Of a stretch of 64,000 nucleotides of DNA, positions 38,583 to 57,013 are shown in pieces. Source of the stretch: Streptomyces acidicola (GTDB lineage: Bacteria > Actinomycetota > Actinomycetes > Streptomycetales > Streptomycetaceae); NCBI RefSeq assembly GCF_009377235.1, contig NZ_VMNX01000007.1, positions 1-64,000 of the forward strand, in the 5' to 3' direction. The number at the start of each line of letters is the position of its first letter. Within the stretch, counting starts at the first letter, position 1. The notes under the pieces were generated by a model that ran no database searches, was not told the DNA's origin, and saw only the letters and a program-made list of their open reading frames with translations. The translations under genes were made by a program, and so were the position numbers.

Positions 38583-39113
38583 TCAGGGCACCGCCGTGCC
38601 GCGGTGGCCACGCAGAGGCGAGAGGCCGGGCAGCACCGTGGGCGGGGCCTGCGGCCGTGTGTCGGCGGGTTCTTTCTGCGCCGGACGACCGGCGAGGGCC
38701 GCGACGATGTCGGCTGCGGTCAGCACCCCCGCGAGACGCCCGTCCTCCTCCAGCACCGGGAGGGCGTCGGCCTCGGTGTAGCTCATGATGTCGGCCGCGT
38801 GGCGTACGGTCTGCTCCACGTGGACGTGCGCCGGTCTGTGGCCGGGCAGGAGTTGGTCCACGCGCAGCCCGGACAGCGAAGCGGCCGGTGTCGCGCAGGC
38901 GACCGCCACCTCGGCCCGGTCCAGCAGGCCTGCACAGCGGCCGTCCGGACGCACGACCGGGAGGTGACGGGAGCCGGAACGCTCCAGCAGTTCCCAGGCC
39001 ACGAGCACGGTTTCGTCGACTGCGATCGTGACCACAGCGGTGTGCATCACGACGGCGACCGTCCGCGCCAGAACCTCCCGCTCGTCGGGAACCGTCCCTG
39101 GCTGCTGTTCCAT
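38583..39113 (-). CDS. Tandem CBS-domain protein
   Basis: This 176-aa soluble protein is two CBS motifs forming one Bateman module: VVTIAVDETVLVAWELLERS with HLPVVRPDGRCAGLLDRAE, and HVHVEQTVRHAADIMSYTEA with ALPVLEEDGRLAGVLTAADI. CBS pairs bind adenosine nucleotides and regulate a partner. It lies 43 bp downstream of the FtsH gene on the same strand and may be co-expressed with it. The partner is unknown. ATG 39113 (MEQQPGTVPDE) is chosen for its better-spaced ribosome site. It converges on GH43 with only 33 bp between stops. Confidence 0.87.
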   Translation of the reverse strand: MEQQPGTVPDEREVLARTVAVVMHTAVVTIAVDETVLVAWELLERSGSRHLPVVRPDGRCAGLLDRAEVAVACATPAASLSGLRVDQLLPGHRPAHVHVEQTVRHAADIMSYTEADALPVLEEDGRLAGVLTAADIVAALAGRPAQKEPADTRPQAPPTVLPGLSPLRGHRGTAVP

Positions 39114-39156
39114 GGTCGTCTCCAGCCTCACTCCTGTTCGCGGGCGTCACCGCGCG

Positions 39157-41133
<1,977 letters not shown>

Positions 41134-41442
41134 GGACGGCTCCCTCTGCGGAAGGACGGACCTCGGGCGAGGCCGTTCCCGGAATGCGAAGGGACGCGGA
41201 TCGCGGGTGGGTCCTGCTTCAGGGATCAACGCCCCCTCCACCACTGTCCATTTTTACTTGTTTGACATGAAACGATCCACCTTTCGGGAGCCCCGGTCGG
41301 GAGGCCCGCAAGGGCCGGAGGCCGATCCGCGCGGCAGGCTCTTCGCACGGCGCGGATTGCGGCGTTGGATTACGATTTGTCTAGCACTGACTTCTGATAC
41401 ATCTGATGAAGGAGTGCCCTACGGTGAGGTAGGTGTCTGACG
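41134..41442. other. 309-bp divergent gap between ftsH and the alpha/beta hydrolase gene
   Basis: It contains two A+T-richer patches: around 41250-41275 (CATTTTTACTTGTTTGACATG), likely the ftsH promoter zone, and 41370-41405 (TTGTCTAGCACTGACTTCTG, then ATACATC), likely the hydrolase promoter zone. GAAGGAG and GAGGTAGG lie before the hydrolase start. I see no heat-shock HAIR or CIRCE element. Confidence 0.4.
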
Positions 41443-42680: not shown

Positions 42681-43754
42681 ATGCCACAGCCGGGGGCCGA
42701 GTCCGAGAACCCCAGGGTGGCGCACGGCCCCTTCGCGCGGCTGCCGGGCTGGGTGTGGTGGCTGGGTGCCGTGCTCGTCGTGGTGGCCGCGGTTGTGGTG
42801 GCGATCTCCCGGCGGCGCGAGCTGGTGGAGGCGTACCACCTGATCACCCGGGTGCGCCTGCCCGGCCTGGCGGTCGCCGTGGTGTTCGAGGCGATGTCCA
42901 TCATGTGCTTCGCGGCCGTGTCGCGCTGGCTGCTGCGGGCCGGTGGTGTGCGGTGGAGCATGTTCCGGATGACGGCCTTCGCCATGGCCGCCAACGCCAT
43001 GGCCGGTGCGCTGCCGGGCGGGGCGGTCTTTTCCGCCGCCTGGGTGTACCGGCAGCTGTCACGCAGGGACGTGGGGCATGTGCTCGCGGCGGCGGTGCTG
43101 GTGATCGCCGGTGCGTTGTCGACGCTCAGTCTGGTCGTCCTCCTCCTGGTCGGCGCGCTCGCGACCGGCCCGAGCGGCCTCGGCTCCTTCGTTCGCCCAG
43201 TGATAGGCGTGCTGGTGTTCGCCCTCGCGCTCGGTCTGGTGGCCCTTGGTCTGTCCCGCTTCGCGAGCTTCCGCCGTGTGCTGCGGCGCTTCTGGGGGCA
43301 CATCGGTGAGCGTTCCAGGCGAGTCCGGCAGGCAGAGGTGGCCCTGGTCAACCTGGCCGACCAGGCCCGCAGCGTGCAGCCCGGGTTCCTGCCGTGGCTG
43401 CGGCCGTTCACGTTCGCCCTGCTCAACTGGATCTTTGATGCCGCATGTCTGGCGGGCGGGATGTGGGCGCTCGGCATCGGTGTGCCGTGGCACGGACTGC
43501 TGCTCGCCTACGGGCTCACCCAGATCGCGGGCTCTCTGCGTCTGACCCCCGGCGGCCTGGGCATCGTCGAGGCGAGCCTGTCCGCGCTGCTCGTCGCCTA
43601 CGGTCTGCACCCCGGGCAGGCGATCGCCGCCACGTTCCTCTACCGGATCATCAGCTACTGGGCGTTGCAGCCGATCGGCTGGGCGTGCTGGGTCGCCGTG
43701 ACCCTCAGCCCCGCCCCGTCCTCTCGAAGCCGCAAGGCGGAGGGCGGGCGGTGA
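42681..43754 (+). CDS. YbhN/lysylphosphatidylglycerol-synthase-type integral membrane protein
   Basis: This 357-aa protein has about eight hydrophobic helices and the family pattern: LPGLAVAVVFEAMSIMCFAA, FAMAANAMAGALPGGAVFSA (the NxxPGG-like core), and near the end LTPGGLGIVEASLSALLVAY. This UPF0104/flippase-like fold is the membrane half of MprF and occurs alone in proteins thought to move lipids. The acceptor lipid is unknown. It is on the same strand as the hydrolase but spaced by 239 bp and is convergent with the giant ATPase gene. The start is ATG 42681 (MPQPGAESE). Confidence 0.85.
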   Translation: MPQPGAESENPRVAHGPFARLPGWVWWLGAVLVVVAAVVVAISRRRELVEAYHLITRVRLPGLAVAVVFEAMSIMCFAAVSRWLLRAGGVRWSMFRMTAFAMAANAMAGALPGGAVFSAAWVYRQLSRRDVGHVLAAAVLVIAGALSTLSLVVLLLVGALATGPSGLGSFVRPVIGVLVFALALGLVALGLSRFASFRRVLRRFWGHIGERSRRVRQAEVALVNLADQARSVQPGFLPWLRPFTFALLNWIFDAACLAGGMWALGIGVPWHGLLLAYGLTQIAGSLRLTPGGLGIVEASLSALLVAYGLHPGQAIAATFLYRIISYWALQPIGWACWVAVTLSPAPSSRSRKAEGGR

Positions 43755-43796: not shown

Positions 43797-46700
43797 TCAC
43801 CCTTCCCCTGGTCCTGGCGCTGGACGAGCTGCGTGCCGGGCGGTCGGATGCGCGACGGGGCGCCCCGCGTCGGCGGCGCGGTTGATCGCGGTCTCGACGG
43901 CCGCGAGCCGGTCGGCGAGCAGTCCGAGTGTGGCGACCGCGCGGGCGAGCGCAGCGAGATGGGGGTCCCCCTGGCCGAAGGCTGGGGGATGGTCGGCCTC
44001 CGGTCCGCCGAGGGTGTGGGTGCGGACGTACGCCGCTTTCAGCTCGCCCCAGCGCTGGGCCTGTTCGGTGGTGAGCGTGCCGCGGAGTTCGGCCAGTTTC
44101 AGCAGGTTGGCCTCGGCGCCGGTGGTGAGGGTCTGGGCCTCGGCCCTGTAGTGGTCGTCGATCAGCGCGGCCAGTTCGGCGTCGTTCATGACCGGCTGGA
44201 CGCGCTGGGCGATCTTGTTCATGGTGCGGTAGGACCCCTGCAGCCGAAAGGCCGGTTCCGTGCGGGTGGCGTCGGTCTGGGCGGCCGAGGCGATGTACGC
44301 GGCGTTCACGGCCAGGACCGTCTCGCGGGCGGTCCGCACATGGCGCAGGACGGCCAGGATCGCCTCCAGCTCGGCGGGCGCGTACGGGTGGGTCAGCCGG
44401 TCCGCGTGAGCCGTGGAGTCGCCCTCGGCCAGGCGGACCAGGAGGTCGAGGTCGGTGCGGTCCCGGCCGGCGAGCGGCGCGAGGACCGGGTTCGCGGTGA
44501 GCGCGTTCTCGATGAAGCTGACAGCGAAGGCGTCCTCCTTGCCGGTCAGGACGTCGCCGAGGTTCCATACGTCGGCGCGGTTGGCGAGCATGTCGGGGAC
44601 GCTGAAGCGGCTGCCGGACTCGGTGTAGGGGTTGCCGGCCATGCAGACGGCGAAGCGCTTGCCGCGCAGGTCGTAGGTGCGGGGCCCGCCGTCCCGCACG
44701 CCCTCGATACGGCGCGTGGCGTCGCACAGCGGGATGAACCTCTGCAGCAGCTCGGGCGAGGTGTGCTGGATGTCGTCGAGGTAGAGCAGGGTGTTGTTGC
44801 CCGCCTCCAGCGCGAAGTTGATCTTCTCGACCTCCTGGCGGGCCGTGGCGTTCGGTGCCTCGGCCGGATCGAGCGAGGTGACGGCGTGCCCGAGCGCGGG
44901 GCCGTTGACTTTCACCAGCATGAGACCGAGACGGTCGGCCACGTACTCCATGAGCGTCGTCTTGCCGTAGCCCGGCGGGGAGATGAGCAGAAGCAGGCCT
45001 CCCGTGTCGGTACGCCGGGTCTCGCCGGTGGTGCCGAGCTGCTTGGCGAGACCGTCGCCGACCAGGGGGAGGTAGACCTCGTCGATCAGTGTGCCGCGGA
45101 CGAACGCGGACATCACCCGCGGCCGGTGCTCGTCCAGGCGGATACGTGATCGCTCGGCGGCCACCAGTGCCGTGCGGCGACGCTGGTAGGCGCGGTGCGC
45201 GGGGACCTGGTGGGTGCGGAACGCCCGGGTGCGGGCGAGGAGTTCGTCGACCCGGACCGTGAGCGCACGGCCGCTGATGCGGGGGTGGGTGCCGAGCAGT
45301 CCCTCGACGGTCTTCGCGAGCGGCGCGTCGGACTCGTAGCGGAGCAGGCCGGGGCAGAGCTCGGCGGCCACTGCTTCGGCCAGGTCGCCGGGGGCCGGGT
45401 CGGTGCCGGTGGCAGCGGTGTACGACGACAGCCACGCCTCGACCAGCTGCTTGCGGGCGGTGAGGTCGCCGACCGCGGCGAGGTCGTCGTCGTACGCCGA
45501 CGTGCCCACCGTGCGGCGGAACTTGTCGAGCAGTGTGCGGGCGCCGGCGCTGAGGACGAAGCCGTCGGGGCCGGCCGTCAGCTCCTCGAACAGGTACGCG
45601 GCCGCGGCGGCCCTGACCGGTCCGCCGATCGCCTCCGCCAGTTCCTCCCGCAGCTCGGCGATCGCGGGCGGCGGCCCGAAGGTGTCCCGGGCCCGGGCGA
45701 GTGACACCGAGCGCCGTGTCCAGTTCGCGCGTGCCTCGGGTGTCGTGCCGTGCGCCCAGAACAGCTGGGCGGCGGCGCGGGCGGCGGGTTCGTGCCGCAG
45801 CAGGCCGGCGTCTTCGTGCAGGTGCAGGAGTGCGGTGAGGATCAGCACCGTGTCGTGGTCGTGGATTCCGCGCTCGTAGCCCTCGTCGTAGGCCTCGTCC
45901 GCCGCCTGCCGGACCAGGGCGGGCAGGTCGGCCTCCGCCAGCGCCTGCGGACCGTGCTCGTCCAGGAGTCGGGCGGCGAGGTGCTCGGCGCGGTAGACCT
46001 CGGGCGACTCCGACGGCAGCGGACGGTCCCAGTACGGACGGGTGGCGGCGAAGTCGGGGTCCGTGACGGGGGCGCGGTAGTCCGTGCCGGTCAGGGCGAA
46101 GGCCACGCCGTCGCCGTGCGGAACCAGGGCGAGGTCGAGGGGCTGGGTGTTGACGGCGAAGCGGTGGGGGCCCAGACGCAGGGTGCGGCCGTCGTCGGCG
46201 TACAGGTCGGAGCGGTCGCGCAGGGCGCGCAGGGCCTCCTGGCGGGCCGCCTTGAGTCGGCCGTCGAGTTCCTCCGCTCTTACCTGGTCGCCGAGTTCGC
46301 GCAGTTCGCCGGCGATACGGCGGACCTTGGCGGGCATCGGGTCGGAGGTGAAGTACGTGGCGACGGCGTCCGCGTCGGTGAGGGCGACGGCGCGGCGGGT
46401 GACCGTGCGCAGGACCCTGGTCGCCGAGTCGGCGAGGCGTTCGGCACGGCGGGAGCGGGCGTCGGCGAGGGTCTGCCTGCGGGCGGAGAACGCTTCGTGG
46501 ACCTCGTCGCGCTTGTCCGCCAGCTCGCCGAGAAAGTCGTCGGACTCGGCGAAGCGGGACTCCAGGTTCTCCACCTGCACGAGCATCCGGGTGAGGTGTT
46601 CGTCGCACGCCTCGGGGCTGTCGGAGGCCGCGAGCGCGCCGACGACCGCCTGGCCGAGCAGCGCGAACTCGGCGGCGAACACGGCGTGTCCCTCCCGGTC

Positions 46701-48731
46701 CAGGAGGTCGCGGCGGCGGCCGTCGAGGACGGACCGGGCACGGTTGACGCCGCCGAGAACCTCGGCGATGTGTTCCAGGACGGAGGTGCGGACGGTGGCG
46801 TCGCCGATGTCGAGTCCGGCGACGATCTCGGTCACCGTGCGCAGCTCGTCGGCGAGTTCACCGAGACGGGCGGCGAGGGGCGCGGCCTCGGCGACGGTGG
46901 TGAGCGCCTCGGCGTCGGCAGCGATCCTTTCGATGCCGGCCTGGTGGTCGGCGAAGGCGTCCTCGCGGGCGAGGTGGGCGACGGCCCGCTGCCCGAAGGC
47001 GGCGAGGTCGGCCTGGATGTCGGCGTCGAGTTCGTCGATGCGGGCGGTGTCCGCGTACCGCGTGTCCTTGAGGGTGAGCAGATGGCCCTGGGCTTGGCGA
47101 AGTTCGGTCAGTCCGGCCACCCAGGCGGCGGCACTGCGGGGCGCCTCGCCGCGCAGGCGTCGTACGACTCCGGCGGCCCGGGCGATGGCCGCGGCGAGCG
47201 CGTCCGCGGCCTGCCGGGTCAGTGCCTGGACGGTCTCGAACTCGGACAGCACTTGCTCGGCGGTGACGCGCATCTGCTCCAACGGGCCCAGCAGATCGCC
47301 GAGTTCGGCCTCGCCCAGCCAGTGGTAGGAGTCGGTGGCCCGCACGCAGGCGGCGGCGAGTGCCTCGTACACCTCGCTCGTCGGCGTGGTCTCCGCGACG
47401 GCGCGGGTGAGGGACAGACAGTCGGAGATGCCGCGTACGAGGTCGGCGTTGCCGACGCGGGCCAGCGTGCCGGTGCCGGCCGGCTGGGCGGCGGCGTGGG
47501 TGTCGGAGACGTAGGGGGAGTTCCACAACTGGACGCTGTGCACGCGCTGCGGCTCGGCGTCGGCTCCCGTGGGGTCCCCGCGCAGCACCATCAGCGTGCC
47601 GTCGTCGTGGAGAGCCCAGCCGTGGCCGGACAAGGGGGTGGCGACCTCCTTGCGGATCAGGTTGTACGGCAGCAGCAGGCTGCGGCCTTCCACGCGCGCG
47701 TGGAAGGCGTACAGGACGTCCTCCCCGTTGGGTGAGCGGATCTCACGCTCGAACTCCAGGTCCGCAGTGCCGATGCCGTCGAAGGTCTTGTGCGCGCCGG
47801 TGGCGAGGCAGTAGCCGCCGGGGAAGACGATGCCCTGGTTCTCGGGCAGGCGGCGGCAGGCCCGGCCGATGCCGTCGAGACGGACGACGGTCCTGGTGAG
47901 GGTGTTGAACACCAGGTAGCGGTGGACGTCCTCGTTGTACGGAAGGACGTCCAGCAGGATGAGGGCGCCCACGCGCGCGTACGCGATGTCCGCGTCGGCG
48001 AGGGACTGCAGCGGCTCGGCGACGGGCTCGGCGTAAATGCCTTCATCCGTCTCGGTGTTGTCCTCGACTTTGACGGTGAGAGTGCCGCCGACCGTGTCCA
48101 CGAAGACCTCGTCCTCGATGGAGACATGCGGGTGACGGCCGAGGACGTGGTCGTCGCGGGTCGTCCTCGTCCACTCGACGTCGTGCGAGGGCGGGACGAC
48201 GTGGTCGCGTTCTCCGCGCGCGTCCAGGAACGTCACCGGTCCGTCCTCGGACACGGCCCAGCGCAGGACGCGGATGTCCCCCGCCTTCTCACCGGTCTGG
48301 AAGACGGCCAGCAACCTGCCGTCGACGCGGCGGAGTCGGCGAAGGCGGGCCCCGCGGTAGTAGCGGTGGAGGGCGGTGAACTCGCGTACGAGGGCCGGGT
48401 CGTCGAGCAGGCCGGGCACGGCGTCGTCGGGCAGCGTGTTCAGACCGCGGTCATGCAGCGTGAAGACGTCGCTGAGGGTCGTCTCCGGCTTCAGGTCGAG
48501 AGGGACGTGGTGGCCGAAGAGCAGAGTGCCGCCCACGGAGACTATGTCGCGGGGCACGCAGTTGTGCTCGGTGCGCAGCCGGCCGGTGCTCGTCAGCTCC
48601 AGCCGGGTGGAACCGAACTCCTCGGTGCGACGGGCGTTGAGCGCCTCGGCGCGGCGGGCGAGTTCGGCGGCCTGCGCGGTGAGGCGGTCGCGCAGCACCT
48701 CGTAGCTGCCGGTGTCCGGGCCGGTGGTCAT
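43797..48731 (-). CDS. Giant AAA+ ATPase (DNA repair ATPase-like), flotillin partner
   Basis: This 1,644-aa protein has a beta-rich N-terminal region (about 50-430; segments such as LLFGHHVPLDLKPET and GIVFPGGYCLATGAHKTFDG), a long helical and partly coiled middle (about 430-900), and a C-terminal AAA+ module with Walker A SPPGYGKT (1251-1258), Walker B LLYLDDIQ (about 1315-1322) and sensor-like MAGNPYTES. It has no membrane segment. Homologues are often labelled DNA repair ATPase without mechanistic support. It begins 75 bp after the flotillin gene on the same strand; ATG 48731 follows AGAGGGACCC. The position suggests that it acts at the membrane with the flotillin, perhaps as a MoxR-like remodeller. 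The function is unproven. Confidence 0.8.
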   Translation of the reverse strand: MTTGPDTGSYEVLRDRLTAQAAELARRAEALNARRTEEFGSTRLELTSTGRLRTEHNCVPRDIVSVGGTLLFGHHVPLDLKPETTLSDVFTLHDRGLNTLPDDAVPGLLDDPALVREFTALHRYYRGARLRRLRRVDGRLLAVFQTGEKAGDIRVLRWAVSEDGPVTFLDARGERDHVVPPSHDVEWTRTTRDDHVLGRHPHVSIEDEVFVDTVGGTLTVKVEDNTETDEGIYAEPVAEPLQSLADADIAYARVGALILLDVLPYNEDVHRYLVFNTLTRTVVRLDGIGRACRRLPENQGIVFPGGYCLATGAHKTFDGIGTADLEFEREIRSPNGEDVLYAFHARVEGRSLLLPYNLIRKEVATPLSGHGWALHDDGTLMVLRGDPTGADAEPQRVHSVQLWNSPYVSDTHAAAQPAGTGTLARVGNADLVRGISDCLSLTRAVAETTPTSEVYEALAAACVRATDSYHWLGEAELGDLLGPLEQMRVTAEQVLSEFETVQALTRQAADALAAAIARAAGVVRRLRGEAPRSAAAWVAGLTELRQAQGHLLTLKDTRYADTARIDELDADIQADLAAFGQRAVAHLAREDAFADHQAGIERIAADAEALTTVAEAAPLAARLGELADELRTVTEIVAGLDIGDATVRTSVLEHIAEVLGGVNRARSVLDGRRRDLLDREGHAVFAAEFALLGQAVVGALAASDSPEACDEHLTRMLVQVENLESRFAESDDFLGELADKRDEVHEAFSARRQTLADARSRRAERLADSATRVLRTVTRRAVALTDADAVATYFTSDPMPAKVRRIAGELRELGDQVRAEELDGRLKAARQEALRALRDRSDLYADDGRTLRLGPHRFAVNTQPLDLALVPHGDGVAFALTGTDYRAPVTDPDFAATRPYWDRPLPSESPEVYRAEHLAARLLDEHGPQALAEADLPALVRQAADEAYDEGYERGIHDHDTVLILTALLHLHEDAGLLRHEPAARAAAQLFWAHGTTPEARANWTRRSVSLARARDTFGPPPAIAELREELAEAIGGPVRAAAAAYLFEELTAGPDGFVLSAGARTLLDKFRRTVGTSAYDDDLAAVGDLTARKQLVEAWLSSYTAATGTDPAPGDLAEAVAAELCPGLLRYESDAPLAKTVEGLLGTHPRISGRALTVRVDELLARTRAFRTHQVPAHRAYQRRRTALVAAERSRIRLDEHRPRVMSAFVRGTLIDEVYLPLVGDGLAKQLGTTGETRRTDTGGLLLLISPPGYGKTTLMEYVADRLGLMLVKVNGPALGHAVTSLDPAEAPNATARQEVEKINFALEAGNNTLLYLDDIQHTSPELLQRFIPLCDATRRIEGVRDGGPRTYDLRGKRFAVCMAGNPYTESGSRFSVPDMLANRADVWNLGDVLTGKEDAFAVSFIENALTANPVLAPLAGRDRTDLDLLVRLAEGDSTAHADRLTHPYAPAELEAILAVLRHVRTARETVLAVNAAYIASAAQTDATRTEPAFRLQGSYRTMNKIAQRVQPVMNDAELAALIDDHYRAEAQTLTTGAEANLLKLAELRGTLTTEQAQRWGELKAAYVRTHTLGGPEADHPPAFGQGDPHLAALARAVATLGLLADRLAAVETAINRAADAGRPVAHPTARHAARPAPGPGEG

Positions 48732-48806
48732 GGGTCCCTCTCAAAAGGTTGGGAAGCATGGCCGGGAGCTGCCGTCCCCTGTGCGGCAGCTCCCGGCCAT
48801 GGGCTG

Positions 48807-50840
48807 TCAGGGCTTGGCGCTGCCGTTGACCGCGGCGAGCGGAGTGTCCGCGAGGCCCAGCTCGCCGGCCCTGTCGAGCAGTTGCTGAAGCCGTCCGGCA
48901 TGGGCGCCGCCGCTGTGCATGAGCTTCATCAGCAGGGCGGACACGGTCAGGTTCTGCACATCGCCGGTGGAGACCGAGCCGAGGACACGGCTCAAGTCGT
49001 CGGCGAAGCTCGCCGTACCGTCCAGCCAGGGCCCCGCCAGCGCCTGCGCGGTCTCGGAGTGCTGGACGAATCCGTCGACGCCCTTGCCGAGCGCGATCGA
49101 GGACACCAGCCGGTCGAAGAAGACCGACTCGCCGCCGACGATGTCGATGTCGGCGTTCTCCAGTCCGGTGGCGAGCACGGTGGCCTGTGCCTCGGCGACC
49201 TGCCGCTGCACGTCAAGCCCGGCCAGGCGGATGTCCTTCTCTGCCTCCAGCCGCAGCCGGTACTCCTCGTGGCCGCGGGACGCCTCGTCGAGCGCGGCCA
49301 TCGCCGCCGCCTTCTCGGTGAGACCGGCCGCCTCCGCCTTGAGCTTCTCCCCGATGGCCTCCGCCTCGGCGAGCGCCCTGGCCCGGGCTCCCTCGGCCTC
49401 CGCACGCATGCGCGCCTCGGTGGCCTCGGCCTCCGCGCGGCCGGCCTTCTCGATGACCTCGGCCTCCTTGTCACGGACCTGGACGGCCGCCAGCCCCTCG
49501 GCGGCGCGTTCGGCCTGGATGCCCTCGGCCAGCCGCAGCTTGGCCCGCGCGTCGAGGTCGGCGCTCTTCAACCGCGCCTCGGCCAGAGCGAGTTCCTCGG
49601 CGGCGCGGTGCACGGCCGCCTGCTCGGCGGCCTCCGCGGCCTTGATGTCCTTGACCAGCTTCTCCTGCGCCTCCGCCTCGGCGGCGATGACGACCGCCTG
49701 TCGCTGCCGCTCCGCCTCCTCCACGGCACGCAGCCTCTTGATGGACTCCTCCTGCTCGGCGACCGTACGGTCCACCGCGACCCGCTCGCGGATGACCTCG
49801 GCAATCTCCCGCTTCTCCGCCTCGACCTCCTTCGAAGCGGCGATTCGGGTCAGCTCGGTCTCCCGCTCCCGGGCGATGACTTCGAGCTGCCGGTCCTTCT
49901 CGATGCGCTCGTTCTCGACGGCGATGACCCGCTCGCGGTTCTTCGCGGCCACGGCGACCTCGCGACCCTGGTTCTCCCGCTGGACGCCGAGCTGTTCCTC
50001 GGTGCGCAGGAACGCGCCCTGTGCCCGCAGCCGCTCCTCCTCCACCACGCGCGCCGTCTCGGCCTCCTCACGGGCCCGTACGGTCTCGATCTCCCTCTTC
50101 TGCTTGATCTCGGCGTCCGCCTGACGCCGCTCCAGCTCCAGGATCGTCTCGCGGGCGTCGACGTTCTGCCGGGTGATCTCCATCTCCTCGGTGCGCTGGG
50201 CCTCGTTGGTGCGCACGTGCTCCACGGCCGTCAGCTCGGTGATCTTGCGGATGCCCTGGGCGTCCAGCACGTTGGCCGGGTCGAGCTGGGTCAGCGGCGT
50301 CTGCTCCAGGTAGTCGATCGCCGCGTCCTCCAGGTGGTAGCCGTTGAGGTCGACACCGATGACCTCGATGATCCGGTACCGCAGCTCCTCGCGCTTGGTG
50401 TACAGGTCGGTGAAGTCCAGTTGCTTGCCGACGGTTTTCAGCGCCTCGGAGAACTTCGCGTGGAACAACTCCTGCAGCGTCTTCTGGTCGCTCGCACGAG
50501 CGGTGCCGACGGCCTGAGCGACCTTGATGACGTCCTCGACCGTCTTGTTGACCTTCACGAAGAACGAGATGCGGATGTCTGCGCGGATGTTGTCCCGGCA
50601 GATCAGCCCGTCCCGTCCGGCCCGGGTGATCTCGATGGCCTTCACCGAGATGTCCATCACCTCGGCCTTGTGCAGCACCGGCAGCACGACCTGCCCCGTG
50701 AAGGTCACGTCGACCTTCCGCAGCTTGGACACGATCAGTGCCTTGCCCTGCTCCACCTTGCGGAACAGCAGCGAGACGACGAGTAGGGCAAGCAGGCAGA
50801 CGGCGACGAACACGCCGAGGCCCACGGTCATGGCATTCAT
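48807..50840 (-). CDS. Flotillin-like SPFH protein (YqiK type)
   Basis: This 677-aa protein has an N-terminal membrane helix (VGLGVFVAVCLLALLVVSLL), an SPFH domain (about 28-200; RKVEQGKALIVSKLRKVDVT and GLICRDNIRADIRISFFVKV), then a very long charged, Ala/Glu-rich coiled coil (about 200-560) and a flotillin-type C-terminal part with LATGLENADIDIVGGESVFF. Such proteins form large membrane scaffolds or cages. ATG 50840 follows AAGGACG; a second ATG nine bases on is possible. It lies between a small YqiJ-like membrane protein (upstream, 90 bp) and the giant AAA+ ATPase (downstream, 75 bp), implying one transcript. Confidence 0.9.
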   Translation of the reverse strand: MNAMTVGLGVFVAVCLLALLVVSLLFRKVEQGKALIVSKLRKVDVTFTGQVVLPVLHKAEVMDISVKAIEITRAGRDGLICRDNIRADIRISFFVKVNKTVEDVIKVAQAVGTARASDQKTLQELFHAKFSEALKTVGKQLDFTDLYTKREELRYRIIEVIGVDLNGYHLEDAAIDYLEQTPLTQLDPANVLDAQGIRKITELTAVEHVRTNEAQRTEEMEITRQNVDARETILELERRQADAEIKQKREIETVRAREEAETARVVEEERLRAQGAFLRTEEQLGVQRENQGREVAVAAKNRERVIAVENERIEKDRQLEVIARERETELTRIAASKEVEAEKREIAEVIRERVAVDRTVAEQEESIKRLRAVEEAERQRQAVVIAAEAEAQEKLVKDIKAAEAAEQAAVHRAAEELALAEARLKSADLDARAKLRLAEGIQAERAAEGLAAVQVRDKEAEVIEKAGRAEAEATEARMRAEAEGARARALAEAEAIGEKLKAEAAGLTEKAAAMAALDEASRGHEEYRLRLEAEKDIRLAGLDVQRQVAEAQATVLATGLENADIDIVGGESVFFDRLVSSIALGKGVDGFVQHSETAQALAGPWLDGTASFADDLSRVLGSVSTGDVQNLTVSALLMKLMHSGGAHAGRLQQLLDRAGELGLADTPLAAVNGSAKP

Positions 50841-50930
50841 GGCATACGTCCTTGAGGCGTAAGGGAGTTGGAGCGTGGTGATGGAGGAGCCGGGGGTGGG
50901 CTCGGTGGCGGCGCGACTCGGACTGCGTGG

Positions 50931-51419
50931 CTAGGCGGCGCGGTCGCGCGGCCGGACCGGGTCACTCGATGCGCCCCAGCAGGGGTCGCGGTCGCCGGCA
51001 TCCGGGATCCCGTTGCCGTCGCCCGTGCGGGCCTCCCTCGGCACGGGCAGCCCGGGTTTGTCCGGGAAGAGGCGGTGCAACGGCCGTACGATCAGGCAGG
51101 TCGTGGCCCAGGCGACGAGCAGCGCTCCCGCGGGCGCGACCAGGCGCAGCAGCCCGTCGGCGGGTCCCGGGGGCACGAACACGGCGATCAGAAGCGCGGC
51201 TCCCACGCTCAGGGACCAGGCGAGCACCGTCAGCAAGGACAGGGCGACCGTCACGGGCACGCCGCTCATCCGCCACGCCCGCAGGTCCACGTCCGTGTCG
51301 AAGCTGTCGACGGCGGCGACACCCAGGGCGGACAGGAGCCAGAAGCAGACGACCACGACGAGGGCAGCGGTCAACAGGATCGTGGGCAGACCGGTGGCGG
51401 CCGTCAGCAATGTCCGCAT
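50931..51419 (-). CDS. Small membrane protein, YqiJ-like position
   Basis: This 162-aa protein has three hydrophobic segments (ILLTAALVVVVCFWLLSALG; GVPVTVALSLLTVLAWSLSV extending into LLIAVFV; GALLVAWATTCLIV) and a short polar tail with Arg, Asp and Pro. In E. coli the flotillin gene yqiK follows yqiJ, a membrane protein with an OB-fold end. Here the length and order match the membrane part, but no OB fold is seen. It begins at ATG 51419, heading the flotillin and ATPase unit, and could anchor the assembly. Homology to YqiJ is suggested by context and topology only. Confidence 0.6.
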   Translation of the reverse strand: MRTLLTAATGLPTILLTAALVVVVCFWLLSALGVAAVDSFDTDVDLRAWRMSGVPVTVALSLLTVLAWSLSVGAALLIAVFVPPGPADGLLRLVAPAGALLVAWATTCLIVRPLHRLFPDKPGLPVPREARTGDGNGIPDAGDRDPCWGASSDPVRPRDRAA

Positions 51420-51862
51420 CTCCCCGTCCCCCCTCCGCTCGCAGCACGCGCCCCTTGTCTGACACGGCCGTTCCGGATTCCGGTGCCGGACACCTGCCGG
51501 TGCCCGGCACCGGAATCATCCGTTGTGCTCCCCGCGAGCCATGCTGCACGACCGGGCCTCGGCCGCGCATTGCCGGTTCCCGGCAGTGTTCCTTGGGGTC
51601 TGCATGCCGGTGACCGTTAAGGAACCGCCGCCACGGTATCCAGGGCTGCGCGACAGTCCGCCGCAGCCACTACCCGGACGCATCGACGTCTCCTCACACC
51701 ATTGACACTCGCCTGTCCCAACCCGAGACTCATGTCCGCCAGTGAATCGGATTTCACCAGGCGAACAATCCTCACGTTCCAGGGCCCGCTCATCACCTTC
51801 CCGTCCCCCTCTCTCCCCCACTCATCTCCGATCTCTCCTCCCGCTCATCTCCAAGGACGAAG
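51420..51862. other. 443-bp divergent gap between the flotillin unit and the AAHS transporter gene
   Basis: Besides the strong inverted repeat it contains GTCTGACAC near 51457 and GGTGACCGTTAAGGAACC near 51609, either of which could be regulator sites. A C/T-rich tract (about 51790-51855) leads to AAGGACGAAG, the ribosome site of the transporter gene. No supported gene. Confidence 0.45.
51476..51517. promoter_or_regulatory. 14-bp perfect inverted repeat before the flotillin unit
   Basis: GATTCCGGTGCCGG (51476-51489) is exactly mirrored by CCGGCACCGGAATC (51504-51517) around a 14-nt loop. The right part is itself a palindrome, CCGGTGCCCGGCACCGG (51497-51513), so two alternative stems are possible. 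It lies 57 bp from the first start codon. Since genes on both sides point away, a terminator is not needed here; an operator or leader RNA element is more likely. Confidence 0.65.
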
Positions 51863-53671: not shown

Positions 53672-54754
53672 ATGCCCGCATCCGTACGACGACGGCCTCA
53701 CCCGCGCCTCCGCCGGACGGCGGCGGCCTTCGTGTCAGGCCTGGCGCTGGCGCTCGCCCTCCCCGCGCAGGCCTCCTCCGCTCCGCCCGGGCCGGAGCGG
53801 GCAGCCGCCACCGCAGCGGCAGAGCTGCCGAGCAGTTTCCGGTGGTCGTCCAGTGGCCCGCTGATCGCCCCCAAGCCCGACGCGAGTCACCCGGTGGTCT
53901 CGGTCAAGGACCCGACGGTGGTCCAGGCGAACGGGAAGTGGCACGTCTTCATGACGACCGCGAACACCTCCGGCACCTGGAGCCTGGCCCAAACGAGTTT
54001 CACCGACTGGTCGCAGGCCGCCTCGGCCCCGCTGACCTACCTGGACACGAACCCCAACATCGGCACCCGGTATGCCGCGGCTCCCCAGGTGTTCTACTTC
54101 GCGCCGAAGGGCGTGTGGTACCTCGTGTACCAGACCGGGCCGCCCTCGTACTCCACCAGCACGGACCCCGGCAACCCGCAGAGCTGGTCCGCCCCTCGGA
54201 CCTTCCAGAACGCCGCTCCGTCGGGGACGCTCGACTACTGGGTGATCTGCGACAGCACCAAGTGCTATCTGTTCTCCGCGGACGACAACGGCCACGTCTA
54301 CCGGTCGGAGACCACCGTCGGCGAGTTCCCGGGCGGCTTCCGCAACACGCAACTCGTGCTCCAGGACGCCGCATTCGCCCTGTTCGAGGGCGGAGCCGTC
54401 TACCGCGTCCAGGGCACCGACACCTATCTGCTGCTGTGGGAGGCCATCGGCGGCGACGGGAGGCGGCACTACCGCTCCTTCACCGCCCAGGGGCTCACCG
54501 GCCAGTGGCAGCCGCTGGCCGCGACCGAGGCCAACCCGTTCGCCCGCAGCAACAACGTCACCTTCCCCTCCGGCGCCTGGACAGCGGACATCAGCCACGG
54601 CGAACTCATCCGCAGCGGCAACGACCAGACCATGACCATCGACCCGTGCCGCCTGCGGTTCCTCTACCAGGGCATGAACCCGTCGGCCGGCGGGGACTAC
54701 TCCCAGCTCCCCTGGCGCCTGGGGCTGCTCACCCAGACGAACAGTTCCTGCTGA
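53672..54754 (+). CDS. Secreted GH62 alpha-L-arabinofuranosidase
   Basis: This 360-aa protein has a signal peptide (VSGLALALALPAQA, cut near 35) and a GH62 five-bladed propeller from about 51. Family segments are VVSVKDPTVVQANGKWHVFM with the base Asp, DYWVICDSTKCYLFSADDNG, LLLWEAIGGDGRRHYRSF with the acid Glu, and the C-terminal AGGDYSQLPWRLGLLTQTN. GH62 enzymes strip single arabinose side groups from arabinoxylan. There is no binding module in this chain. The downstream gene encodes a GH10 domain joined to a close GH62 relative, so a local duplication and fusion is likely. ATG 53672 follows TGGAG. Confidence 0.93.
   Translation: MPASVRRRPHPRLRRTAAAFVSGLALALALPAQASSAPPGPERAAATAAAELPSSFRWSSSGPLIAPKPDASHPVVSVKDPTVVQANGKWHVFMTTANTSGTWSLAQTSFTDWSQAASAPLTYLDTNPNIGTRYAAAPQVFYFAPKGVWYLVYQTGPPSYSTSTDPGNPQSWSAPRTFQNAAPSGTLDYWVICDSTKCYLFSADDNGHVYRSETTVGEFPGGFRNTQLVLQDAAFALFEGGAVYRVQGTDTYLLLWEAIGGDGRRHYRSFTAQGLTGQWQPLAATEANPFARSNNVTFPSGAWTADISHGELIRSGNDQTMTIDPCRLRFLYQGMNPSAGGDYSQLPWRLGLLTQTNSSC

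Positions 54755-57013
<2,259 letters not shown>

What the first reader, a model, noticed from the sequence alone, without database searches (positions are those of the whole stretch)
43797..51517. YqiJ-like protein, flotillin and giant AAA+ ATPase as one membrane unit
Seen: three same-strand genes with gaps of 90 and 75 bp: a 3-helix membrane protein, a 677-aa SPFH/flotillin with a very long coiled coil, and a 1,644-aa protein with a C-terminal AAA+ module (Walker A at 1251-1258, Walker B near 1315). A 14-bp perfect inverted repeat precedes the unit. Known: YqiJ/YqiK pairs exist, and large AAA+ proteins of this class are labelled DNA repair without mechanism. Inference: the ATPase works on a flotillin-built platform at the membrane, possibly as a stress or defence system. 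The fixed pairing and the unassigned N-terminal 900 residues make it the best candidate for an undescribed system here.
Basis: partly seen in the sequence, partly recalled or inferred. Interest (0 to 1): 0.8.

Follow-up and report, generated by a model that had tools for sequence, protein, structure and literature searches.

The report
Flotillin–AAA+ ATPase membrane stress unit
Neighbouring Streptomyces genes make an inseparable pair, a raft-type membrane scaffold and a giant ATP-driven motor, with a small membrane helper; the set is already in print as a gene-neighbourhood prediction, and its switch region and neighbours now point to salt and envelope stress rather than DNA repair or phage defence.

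Summary
Observation confirmed: a 162-aa three-helix YqiJ-like protein, a 677-aa SPFH protein and a 1,644-aa DUF3686/AAA+ ATPase, gaps 90 and 75 bp, with a 14-bp perfect inverted repeat upstream.

SPFH and ATPase are inseparable in the sample: of 150 Streptomyces genomes the same 82 carry both and 68 neither; SPFH lies directly upstream in 77 of 80 actinobacterial loci (the other three begin at contig ends) and in 8 of 8 fetched records from other phyla. The YqiJ-like gene is less fixed.

It is not undescribed: Ravi et al. 2024 (PMC11237479) report this operon, with or without PspA, as a predicted membrane-remodelling system. The N-terminus is not unassigned: a WD-like propeller, then a helical rod.

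New here: the repeat belongs to a conserved control region of two TGCCGG-N3-CCGGCA dyads, mostly 75-77 bp apart; the dyad also precedes PucR-type regulator genes and Na+/H+ exchangers; 15 of 37 such exchangers lie within 20 kb of the unit (0.17 expected); the window's YqiJ lacks its C-terminal domain.

Best reading: an ATP-driven machine on a flotillin platform serving ionic/envelope stress. Unit shown; stress link from context, and weak for this very genome; mechanism inferred. Defence and DNA repair found no support.

The parts
43797..48731 (-). 1,644-aa ATPase: DUF3686 propeller, helical rod, AAA+ module
47322..48665 (-). DUF3686 (PF12458) domain, WD-like beta-propeller in the model (residues 23-470)
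46710..46961 (-). DUF7902 (PF25472), residues 591-674, in the helical rod
44202..45014 (-). AAA+ module, about residues 1240-1510; Walker A at 44958-44981
48807..50840 (-). 677-aa SPFH/flotillin-type protein with long coiled coil
50931..51419 (-). 162-aa YqiJ-like membrane protein, three hydrophobic helices, without the C-terminal domain that outgroup relatives have
51476..51517 (-). Inverted repeat: 14-bp perfect arms, 19-bp stem if one G-U pair is allowed, in the leader region
51495..51509 (-). Proximal dyad TGCCGG-N3-CCGGCA, inside the inverted repeat
51571..51585 (-). Distal dyad TGCCGG-N3-CCGGCA, 76 bp upstream of the proximal one

Best explanation
A membrane machine with an inseparable core. 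The SPFH protein builds an oligomeric scaffold on the inner membrane face, helped by the small YqiJ-like membrane protein where present. The giant ATPase, a ring-forming AAA+ motor with a WD-like propeller head and a helical rod, docks on the scaffold and uses ATP to assemble, remodel or take apart protein complexes there. In Streptomyces it is switched by a PucR-type regulator acting on paired TGCCGG-N3-CCGGCA dyads, shared with Na+/H+ exchangers, so it serves ionic/osmotic envelope stress. Shown: pairing, co-inheritance, domain anatomy at model level, conserved AAA+ motifs, conserved dyads. Supported by context only: stress role and identity of the regulator. Inferred: docking, ring formation, substrate, direction of regulation.
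For: Same 82 of 150 genomes have ATPase and SPFH (Fisher p 2e-44); same 8 of 296 over the phylum; SPFH directly upstream in 77 of 80 loci and in 11 of 11 fetched plasmid-collection records, 8 from other phyla. Conserved Walker A, Walker B and further AAA+ motifs across phyla. Propeller model. Dyad with at least 11 of 12 bases before the unit in 55 of 56 Streptomycetaceae loci against 0 of 17 other actinobacterial loci, and 9 perfect dyads elsewhere in 1.62 Mb. Of 8 regulator genes not divergent from the unit, 5 have a dyad (11 or 12 of 12) within 300 bp upstream, 2 have 10 of 12, 1 none. Dyads before Na+/H+ exchangers in L006, L008, L043, L045. Exchangers within 20 kb of the unit: 15 of 37 places, 0.17 expected. 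Salt/osmotic island around the unit on plasmid NZ_CP108236. In B. subtilis yuaF, floT and floA rise in high salinity during spore outgrowth (PMC5052260, passage read).
Against: No experiment. The window itself has no such regulator or transporter (9 queries, no match), its genome has no exchanger of this subfamily, its regulator homologue is only 66% identical and has no dyad, and further dyads in that genome are at control level. The regulator is present in 26 of 68 genomes without the unit, and only 25 of 82 genomes with the unit have the exchanger (p 0.03). Linked loci are related, so counts are not independent. None of the 17 non-Streptomyces loci has regulator or dyad, so the ionic link may be a lineage-specific add-on.
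Confidence: 0.45

Rival explanations
1. PspA-remodelling machine (bacterial ESCRT-like): the ATPase dissolves or recycles PspA polymers on flotillin platforms in general envelope stress; ion stress is only one trigger. In Streptomyces it would work with the PspA encoded elsewhere.
For: PspA and a CesT/Tir or YjfI gene in the same run of genes in pQBR103 and Hymenobacter; one PspA elsewhere in the window's genome; proposed in PMC11237479 (passages).
Against: No PspA within about 10 kb in 80 actinobacterial loci with three PspA queries, one of them the own genome's (two of the queries do not find each other, so sensitivity is limited). The best AAA+ structure matches are not Vps4, which does not exclude it.
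Confidence: 0.25
2. MoxR-like assembly factor for ion transporters: the AAA+ motor inserts or matures the Na+/H+ exchangers or other cation transporters in the flotillin domain.
For: Among the better AAA+ structure matches are NorQ and CbbQ and Pfam AAA_5 is over its cut-off; exchangers cluster with the unit.
Against: AAA+ matches are weak (Z 6.7 or less, ClpA equally good; Foldseek E 1.5e-3 or worse); no VWA partner gene was noticed; 57 of 82 genomes with the unit lack this exchanger subfamily.
Confidence: 0.14
3. Anti-phage defence system on a membrane platform.
For: Patchy distribution (82 of 150 Streptomyces genomes); weak P-loop similarity to IetA (E 0.0036).
Against: No defence family in more than 3 of 141 sampled neighbours (no control set); commonest neighbours are a PucR-type regulator and Na+/H+ exchangers; no match in phage records.
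Confidence: 0.06
4. DNA-repair ATPase, as the database name says.
For: Pfam and annotation name; short RuvB-like P-loop match.
Against: Obligate linkage with a membrane scaffold gene; neighbours are transporters and a regulator.
Confidence: 0.04

Closest known systems
CesT/Tir-PspA + flotillin + YqiJ + propeller-AAA+ operon and its abbreviated forms (Ravi et al. 2024, PMC11237479, section 19)
   Same: [quoted passage not shown] the window matches the abbreviated form
   Different: No PspA or CesT/Tir gene linked; YqiJ without C-terminal domain; paired dyads, PucR-type regulator and Na+/H+ exchanger link, which the passages read do not mention
YqiJ-YqiK / YuaF-FloT (NfeD2-SPFH2) pairs (Hinderhofer et al. 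2009, PMC2636767, passages read)
   Same: NfeD-like membrane protein next to a flotillin-type SPFH protein
   Different: Those passages name no ATPase; here the ATPase is the fixed partner and the NfeD-like domain can be lost
MoxR-type AAA+ ATPases (CbbQ, NorQ)
   Same: Among the best solved-structure neighbours of the AAA+ core
   Different: Fused to propeller and rod; no VWA partner noticed; matches too weak for membership
SPFH-FtsH complexes (HflKC; PMC2636767 passages)
   Same: An SPFH platform serving an AAA+ machine at the membrane; an FtsH gene lies just downstream in the window
   Different: The ATPase here has no M41 protease match; the FtsH gene is not found near the unit in the 91 related loci

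Membership tests
PF12458 DUF3686 ATPases | Full-length match to the profile over its cut-off | tested here: met
   656.7 bits against a cut-off of 25, profile positions 1-448 of 448
PF12458 DUF3686 ATPases | Role in DNA repair, as the family name says | not testable with these tools
   Needs mutants; only the name says so
SPFH/flotillin proteins | Band_7/SPFH domain match | tested here: inconclusive
   P0002 itself no match at E<=1; relatives of 43% and 62% identity match over the cut-off, 2 of 6 scanned
SPFH/flotillin proteins | Membrane-anchored oligomer in detergent-resistant membrane | not testable with these tools
   N-terminal hydrophobic stretch visible in the sequence; oligomer not tested
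NfeD2 (YqiJ/YuaF) partners | C-terminal OB-fold (NfeD-like) domain | tested here: not met
   The window copy ends about 50 residues after the third helix, without the block conserved in 14 relatives; that this block is an OB fold rests on one weak NfeD match of 14 (E 0.0024) and a DUF1449 annotation
PspA-flotillin-AAA+ operon (PMC11237479) | Flotillin, YqiJ-like 3TM protein and propeller-AAA+ ATPase in one run of genes | tested here: met
PspA-flotillin-AAA+ operon (PMC11237479) | Linked CesT/Tir-PspA (full form) | tested here: not met
   Only PspA match of the own genome is on another contig; none near the unit in 80 actinobacterial loci
AAA+ ATPases | Walker A, Walker B, sensor and arginine-finger-like motifs conserved | tested here: met
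   labels of the motifs after Walker B are recalled, not from a call
MoxR AAA+ clade | Helix-2 insert and VWA partner | tested here: inconclusive
   Weak structure matches to CbbQ and NorQ; insert not examined; no VWA gene noticed
Known anti-phage systems (PADLOC) | Match to a system's protein models | tested here: not met
   Only IetA P-loop matches at E 0.0036-0.0043

The most novel reading that the evidence does not exclude
A dedicated salt-stress regulon of Streptomyces: a PucR-type regulator senses an ionic cue and, through paired dyads 76 bp apart, switches on both Na+/H+ exchangers and a flotillin-anchored propeller-AAA+ machine that assembles or maintains such transporters in membrane microdomains, while within this lineage the YqiJ partner loses its C-terminal domain or disappears.
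Probability: 0.3. Interest if true: 0.72.

Novelty: new variant of a known kind. Interest (0 to 1): 0.5.

Why it matters
Bacterial flotillins have few clear phenotypes and few known partners. An ATPase that was not found without its flotillin in the genomes examined gives a handle on what such platforms do with energy. The dyads and the regulator turn 'some envelope stress' into a testable signal, salt or ions, and suggest that the database name 'DNA repair ATPase' misleads.

Tried and rejected
Defence: PADLOC on the unit and on 141 of 643 flanking ORFs; rejected as best reading. DNA repair: name only; rejected as best reading. FtsH partner: an FtsH gene lies just downstream in the window (39157-41244), an attractive SPFH client, but no match was found in the 91 related loci, so it was not used. 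Regulon in the own genome: a 16-base dyad pattern gave 5 places against 6 for the reversed control, so no further member can be named there; the other 18-base hit lies inside a GDSL-type gene (the GDSL label is mine, from the sequence). Alternative inner pairing of the stem-loop: not supported. Rfam: one miRNA match far below threshold. PDB profile searches with the SPFH and YqiJ alignments: no match; with P0001 and with A2 only short P-loop matches. Fold search of residues 480-1644: weak, since rod and AAA+ were folded together (pTM 0.38); no claim of a new fold is made, and families not listed are not excluded. Literature: searches for DUF3686/PF12458, 'DNA repair ATPase' with flotillin, and PucR with flotillin found no paper on the pairing; PMC11237479 describes it. 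NimR, a C. glutamicum PucR-type salt regulator, is recalled; one search did not find it. Not done: E. coli genomes, viral contigs, metagenomes, complex prediction, species-tree correction.

Weak points of counts. Flanking ORFs were picked by a GC3 rule. The set of cation transporter families counted was chosen after seeing neighbours; the sample is the less biased check. The YqiJ length split (31 of 73 sequences under 180 aa) uses a loose motif and match-set starts, and one long ORF (L081) is not YqiJ. In one search, 7 of 80 loci were dropped (no SPFH gene, or under 1,000 bases before it). In one search, 86 of 91 loci were kept. The stem count used 18 of the 22 equal-length segments; the 4 left out pair poorly. 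With all 22 the result is weaker but stands: 86.1% of cells paired against 83.2, 20 double changes against 9.1, 0 of 500 shuffles. A further 15 of the 37 aligned loci have other lengths and were in neither count.

Full report
What is there. On the minus strand of a Streptomyces-like window (closest loci and same-genus genomes are Streptomyces) lie three genes: a 162-aa protein with three hydrophobic helices (50931-51419), a 677-aa SPFH-type protein (48807-50840) and a 1,644-aa ATPase (43797-48731), with gaps of 90 and 75 bp. The ATPase matches PF12458 (DUF3686) over the whole profile, PF25472 (DUF7902), and AAA families around residue 1250.

The SPFH-ATPase pairing is obligate in the sample. 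The ATPase was followed in 80 actinobacterial loci (the best 80 of 164 were kept); an SPFH gene like P0002 lies directly upstream in 77, and in the other three the ATPase match begins 24, 4 and 636 bases from the contig end. Of 150 Streptomyces genomes, 82 have PF12458 over its cut-off and 82 have the SPFH protein (E<=1e-20): the same 82. One further genome, G393, has only a sub-cut-off PF12458 fragment and no SPFH match, and was counted as negative. In two of the 82 (G391, G422) the genes are on different contigs. Over the phylum the same 8 of 296 genomes have both. Twelve plasmid-collection records carry the ATPase (some are chromosome-sized); 11 were fetched and all 11 have SPFH directly upstream, 8 of them from Deinococcota, Bacteroidota and Gammaproteobacteria. 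Distances of the two proteins correlate at r 0.95 over 86 loci, which partly reflects common descent.

Domain anatomy. A model of residues 1-620 (pLDDT 87.1, pTM 0.71) has strands at 45-404; the fold search is led by beta-propeller proteins and VIA-align gives Z 9.7 for the WD40 domain of DCAF1 (214 aligned, rmsd 7.6). The region after it is helical. A model of 480-1644 (pLDDT 77.5, pTM 0.38) gives spectrin-like matches for the rod (Z up to 10.6, within the range of chance for helical bundles) and weak AAA+ matches, ClpA, CbbQ and NorQ at Z 6.4-6.7. Walker A, Walker B and further AAA+ motifs are conserved in sequences from actinobacteria, proteobacteria, Deinococcus and Hymenobacter, so the motor is probably active.

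The small membrane protein is the loose part. Relatives outside the window's clade carry a conserved C-terminal block after the third helix; one of 14 matches Pfam NfeD weakly (E 0.0024) and one is annotated DUF1449. The window's copy stops about 50 residues after the helix without this block, as do many Streptomyces copies. In 16 of 88 loci with an SPFH gene no YqiJ-like ORF or match was found, in 14 of them although upstream sequence is available. So the SPFH-ATPase pair is the fixed core, not the trio.

The inverted repeat is part of a conserved control region with two dyads, TGCCGG-N3-CCGGCA. Before the unit a dyad with at least 11 of 12 bases occurs in 55 of 56 Streptomycetaceae loci (perfect in 43) and in 0 of 17 other actinobacterial loci; 33 of 45 spacings between successive dyads are 75-77 bp. 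Elsewhere in 1.62 Mb only nine perfect dyads occur. Three lie within 300 bp upstream of a PucR-type regulator gene that is not divergent from the unit (L015, L043, L081); of all eight such regulator genes, five have a dyad of 11 or 12 bases there, two have 10 of 12 and one has none. The dyads at L006, L008 and L045 lie about 140-165 bp before a Na+/H+ exchanger, as does that of L043, which sits between regulator and exchanger. L017, L031 and L032 remain unexplained. The proximal dyad sits in a stem whose pairs are kept by changes on both sides: 20 such cells against 9.1 in shuffles (0 of 500) with all 22 equal-length segments, 17 against 7.4 with the 18 that pair best. That fits a leader RNA hairpin or an extended DNA operator; the data do not separate them.

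Regulator and neighbours. The most frequent family beside the unit, apart from its own genes, is a PucR-type regulator (GGDEF_2 + HTH_30): 39 of 80 loci, 31 divergent just upstream and 8 elsewhere in the locus. It was not found near the 17 non-Streptomyces loci. In 150 genomes it is present in 74 of 82 with the unit and 26 of 68 without. Among 141 of 643 flanking ORFs the commonest Pfam families are GGDEF_2/HTH_30 (7) and Na_H_Exchanger (5). Of 37 exchanger places in 35 of 150 genomes, 15 lie within 20 kb of the unit (0.17 expected) and 10 within 5 kb of the regulator; presence of exchanger and unit in a genome is only weakly associated (25 of 82 against 10 of 68, p 0.03). Some cation transporter of the families counted is in 28 of 80 loci. 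In plasmid NZ_CP108236 the unit lies among ectoine synthesis, chloride channel, TerD, NhaD, cation:proton antiporter, Trk and Kdp genes.

Against applying this to the very window: it holds neither regulator nor transporter of this kind, its genome has no exchanger of this subfamily, and the genome's regulator homologue (66% identity) lacks the dyad. The window does keep both dyads, 76 bp apart. The link is thus a property of the wider Streptomyces set and an inference for this genome.

Comparison with what is known. Ravi et al. 2024 (PMC11237479; [quoted passage not shown] This is the same kind. Two records fetched here show the PspA-bearing form; Vibrio has a phospholipase D gene and TelA downstream, Photobacterium TelA. 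Hinderhofer et al. 2009 (PMC2636767, passages) describe the NfeD-SPFH pairs. In B. subtilis yuaF, floT and floA go up in high salinity during spore outgrowth (PMC5052260, passage), which agrees with an ionic role of such platforms. The passages read do not contain, and the searches named under Tried and rejected did not find, the counted obligate pairing, the dyads, the PucR-type regulator, the exchanger link or the loss of the C-terminal domain.

Verdict. Real, well conserved, and in print as a gene-neighbourhood prediction; I found no experiment on it. I read it as an ATP-driven remodelling or assembly machine on a flotillin platform that serves ionic/envelope stress in Streptomyces. Phage defence and DNA repair found no support. 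Interest 0.5: the core is in print, the regulatory and ionic link is new as far as searched, and testable.

Noticed in passing
window 38583-41244 (-): FtsH-type protease gene followed by a CBS-domain gene, 2.5 kb from the ATPase gene; FtsH is a classical SPFH partner, but this neighbourhood was not found in the 91 related loci.
   Followed up: partly
window 42681-43754 (+): Lysylphosphatidylglycerol-synthase-type TM protein gene converging on the ATPase gene, with an alpha/beta hydrolase gene beside it.
   Followed up: no
L003:19253-21321; also L004, L008, L014, L062, L067, L081 and plasmid locus L103: A second, different flotillin gene, with a YuaF-like partner in five of these seven loci, lies within 10 kb of the unit in 7 of 80 loci.
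   Followed up: partly
L099:13834-15612, L098:14547-15629: Vibrio: phospholipase D-like and TelA genes directly downstream of the ATPase; Photobacterium: TelA. TerD genes lie near the unit in 4 of 80 actinobacterial loci: a possible tie to the tellurite/Ter stress systems.
   Followed up: partly
L095 (pQBR103): YjfI-PspA-rhomboid-DUF2491-DUF350-DUF1190-glutathionylspermidine synthase run directly before YqiJ-like, SPFH and ATPase genes: both PspA operon types of PMC11237479 joined on one plasmid.
   Followed up: no
L094:3675-5455: Proteus: TPM-domain gene and a LemA-like gene (label recalled) on the other strand just upstream of the YqiJ-like gene.
   Followed up: no
L017:19567, L031:15741, L032:3184: Three perfect dyads away from unit, regulator and exchanger, unexplained; that of L031 lies between a CBS gene and an NhaD-type gene.
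   Followed up: partly
L031:8083-9838; G391; G422: Apparent breaks of the pair: SPFH gene in two frames in L031; ATPase and SPFH gene on different contigs in G391 and G422.
   Followed up: no
window 53672-54754 and 56060-57010 (+): GH62 gene and a second GH62-like stretch, 63% identical, within 2 kb, in a plant-polysaccharide region with GH5 and GH43 genes.
   Followed up: no
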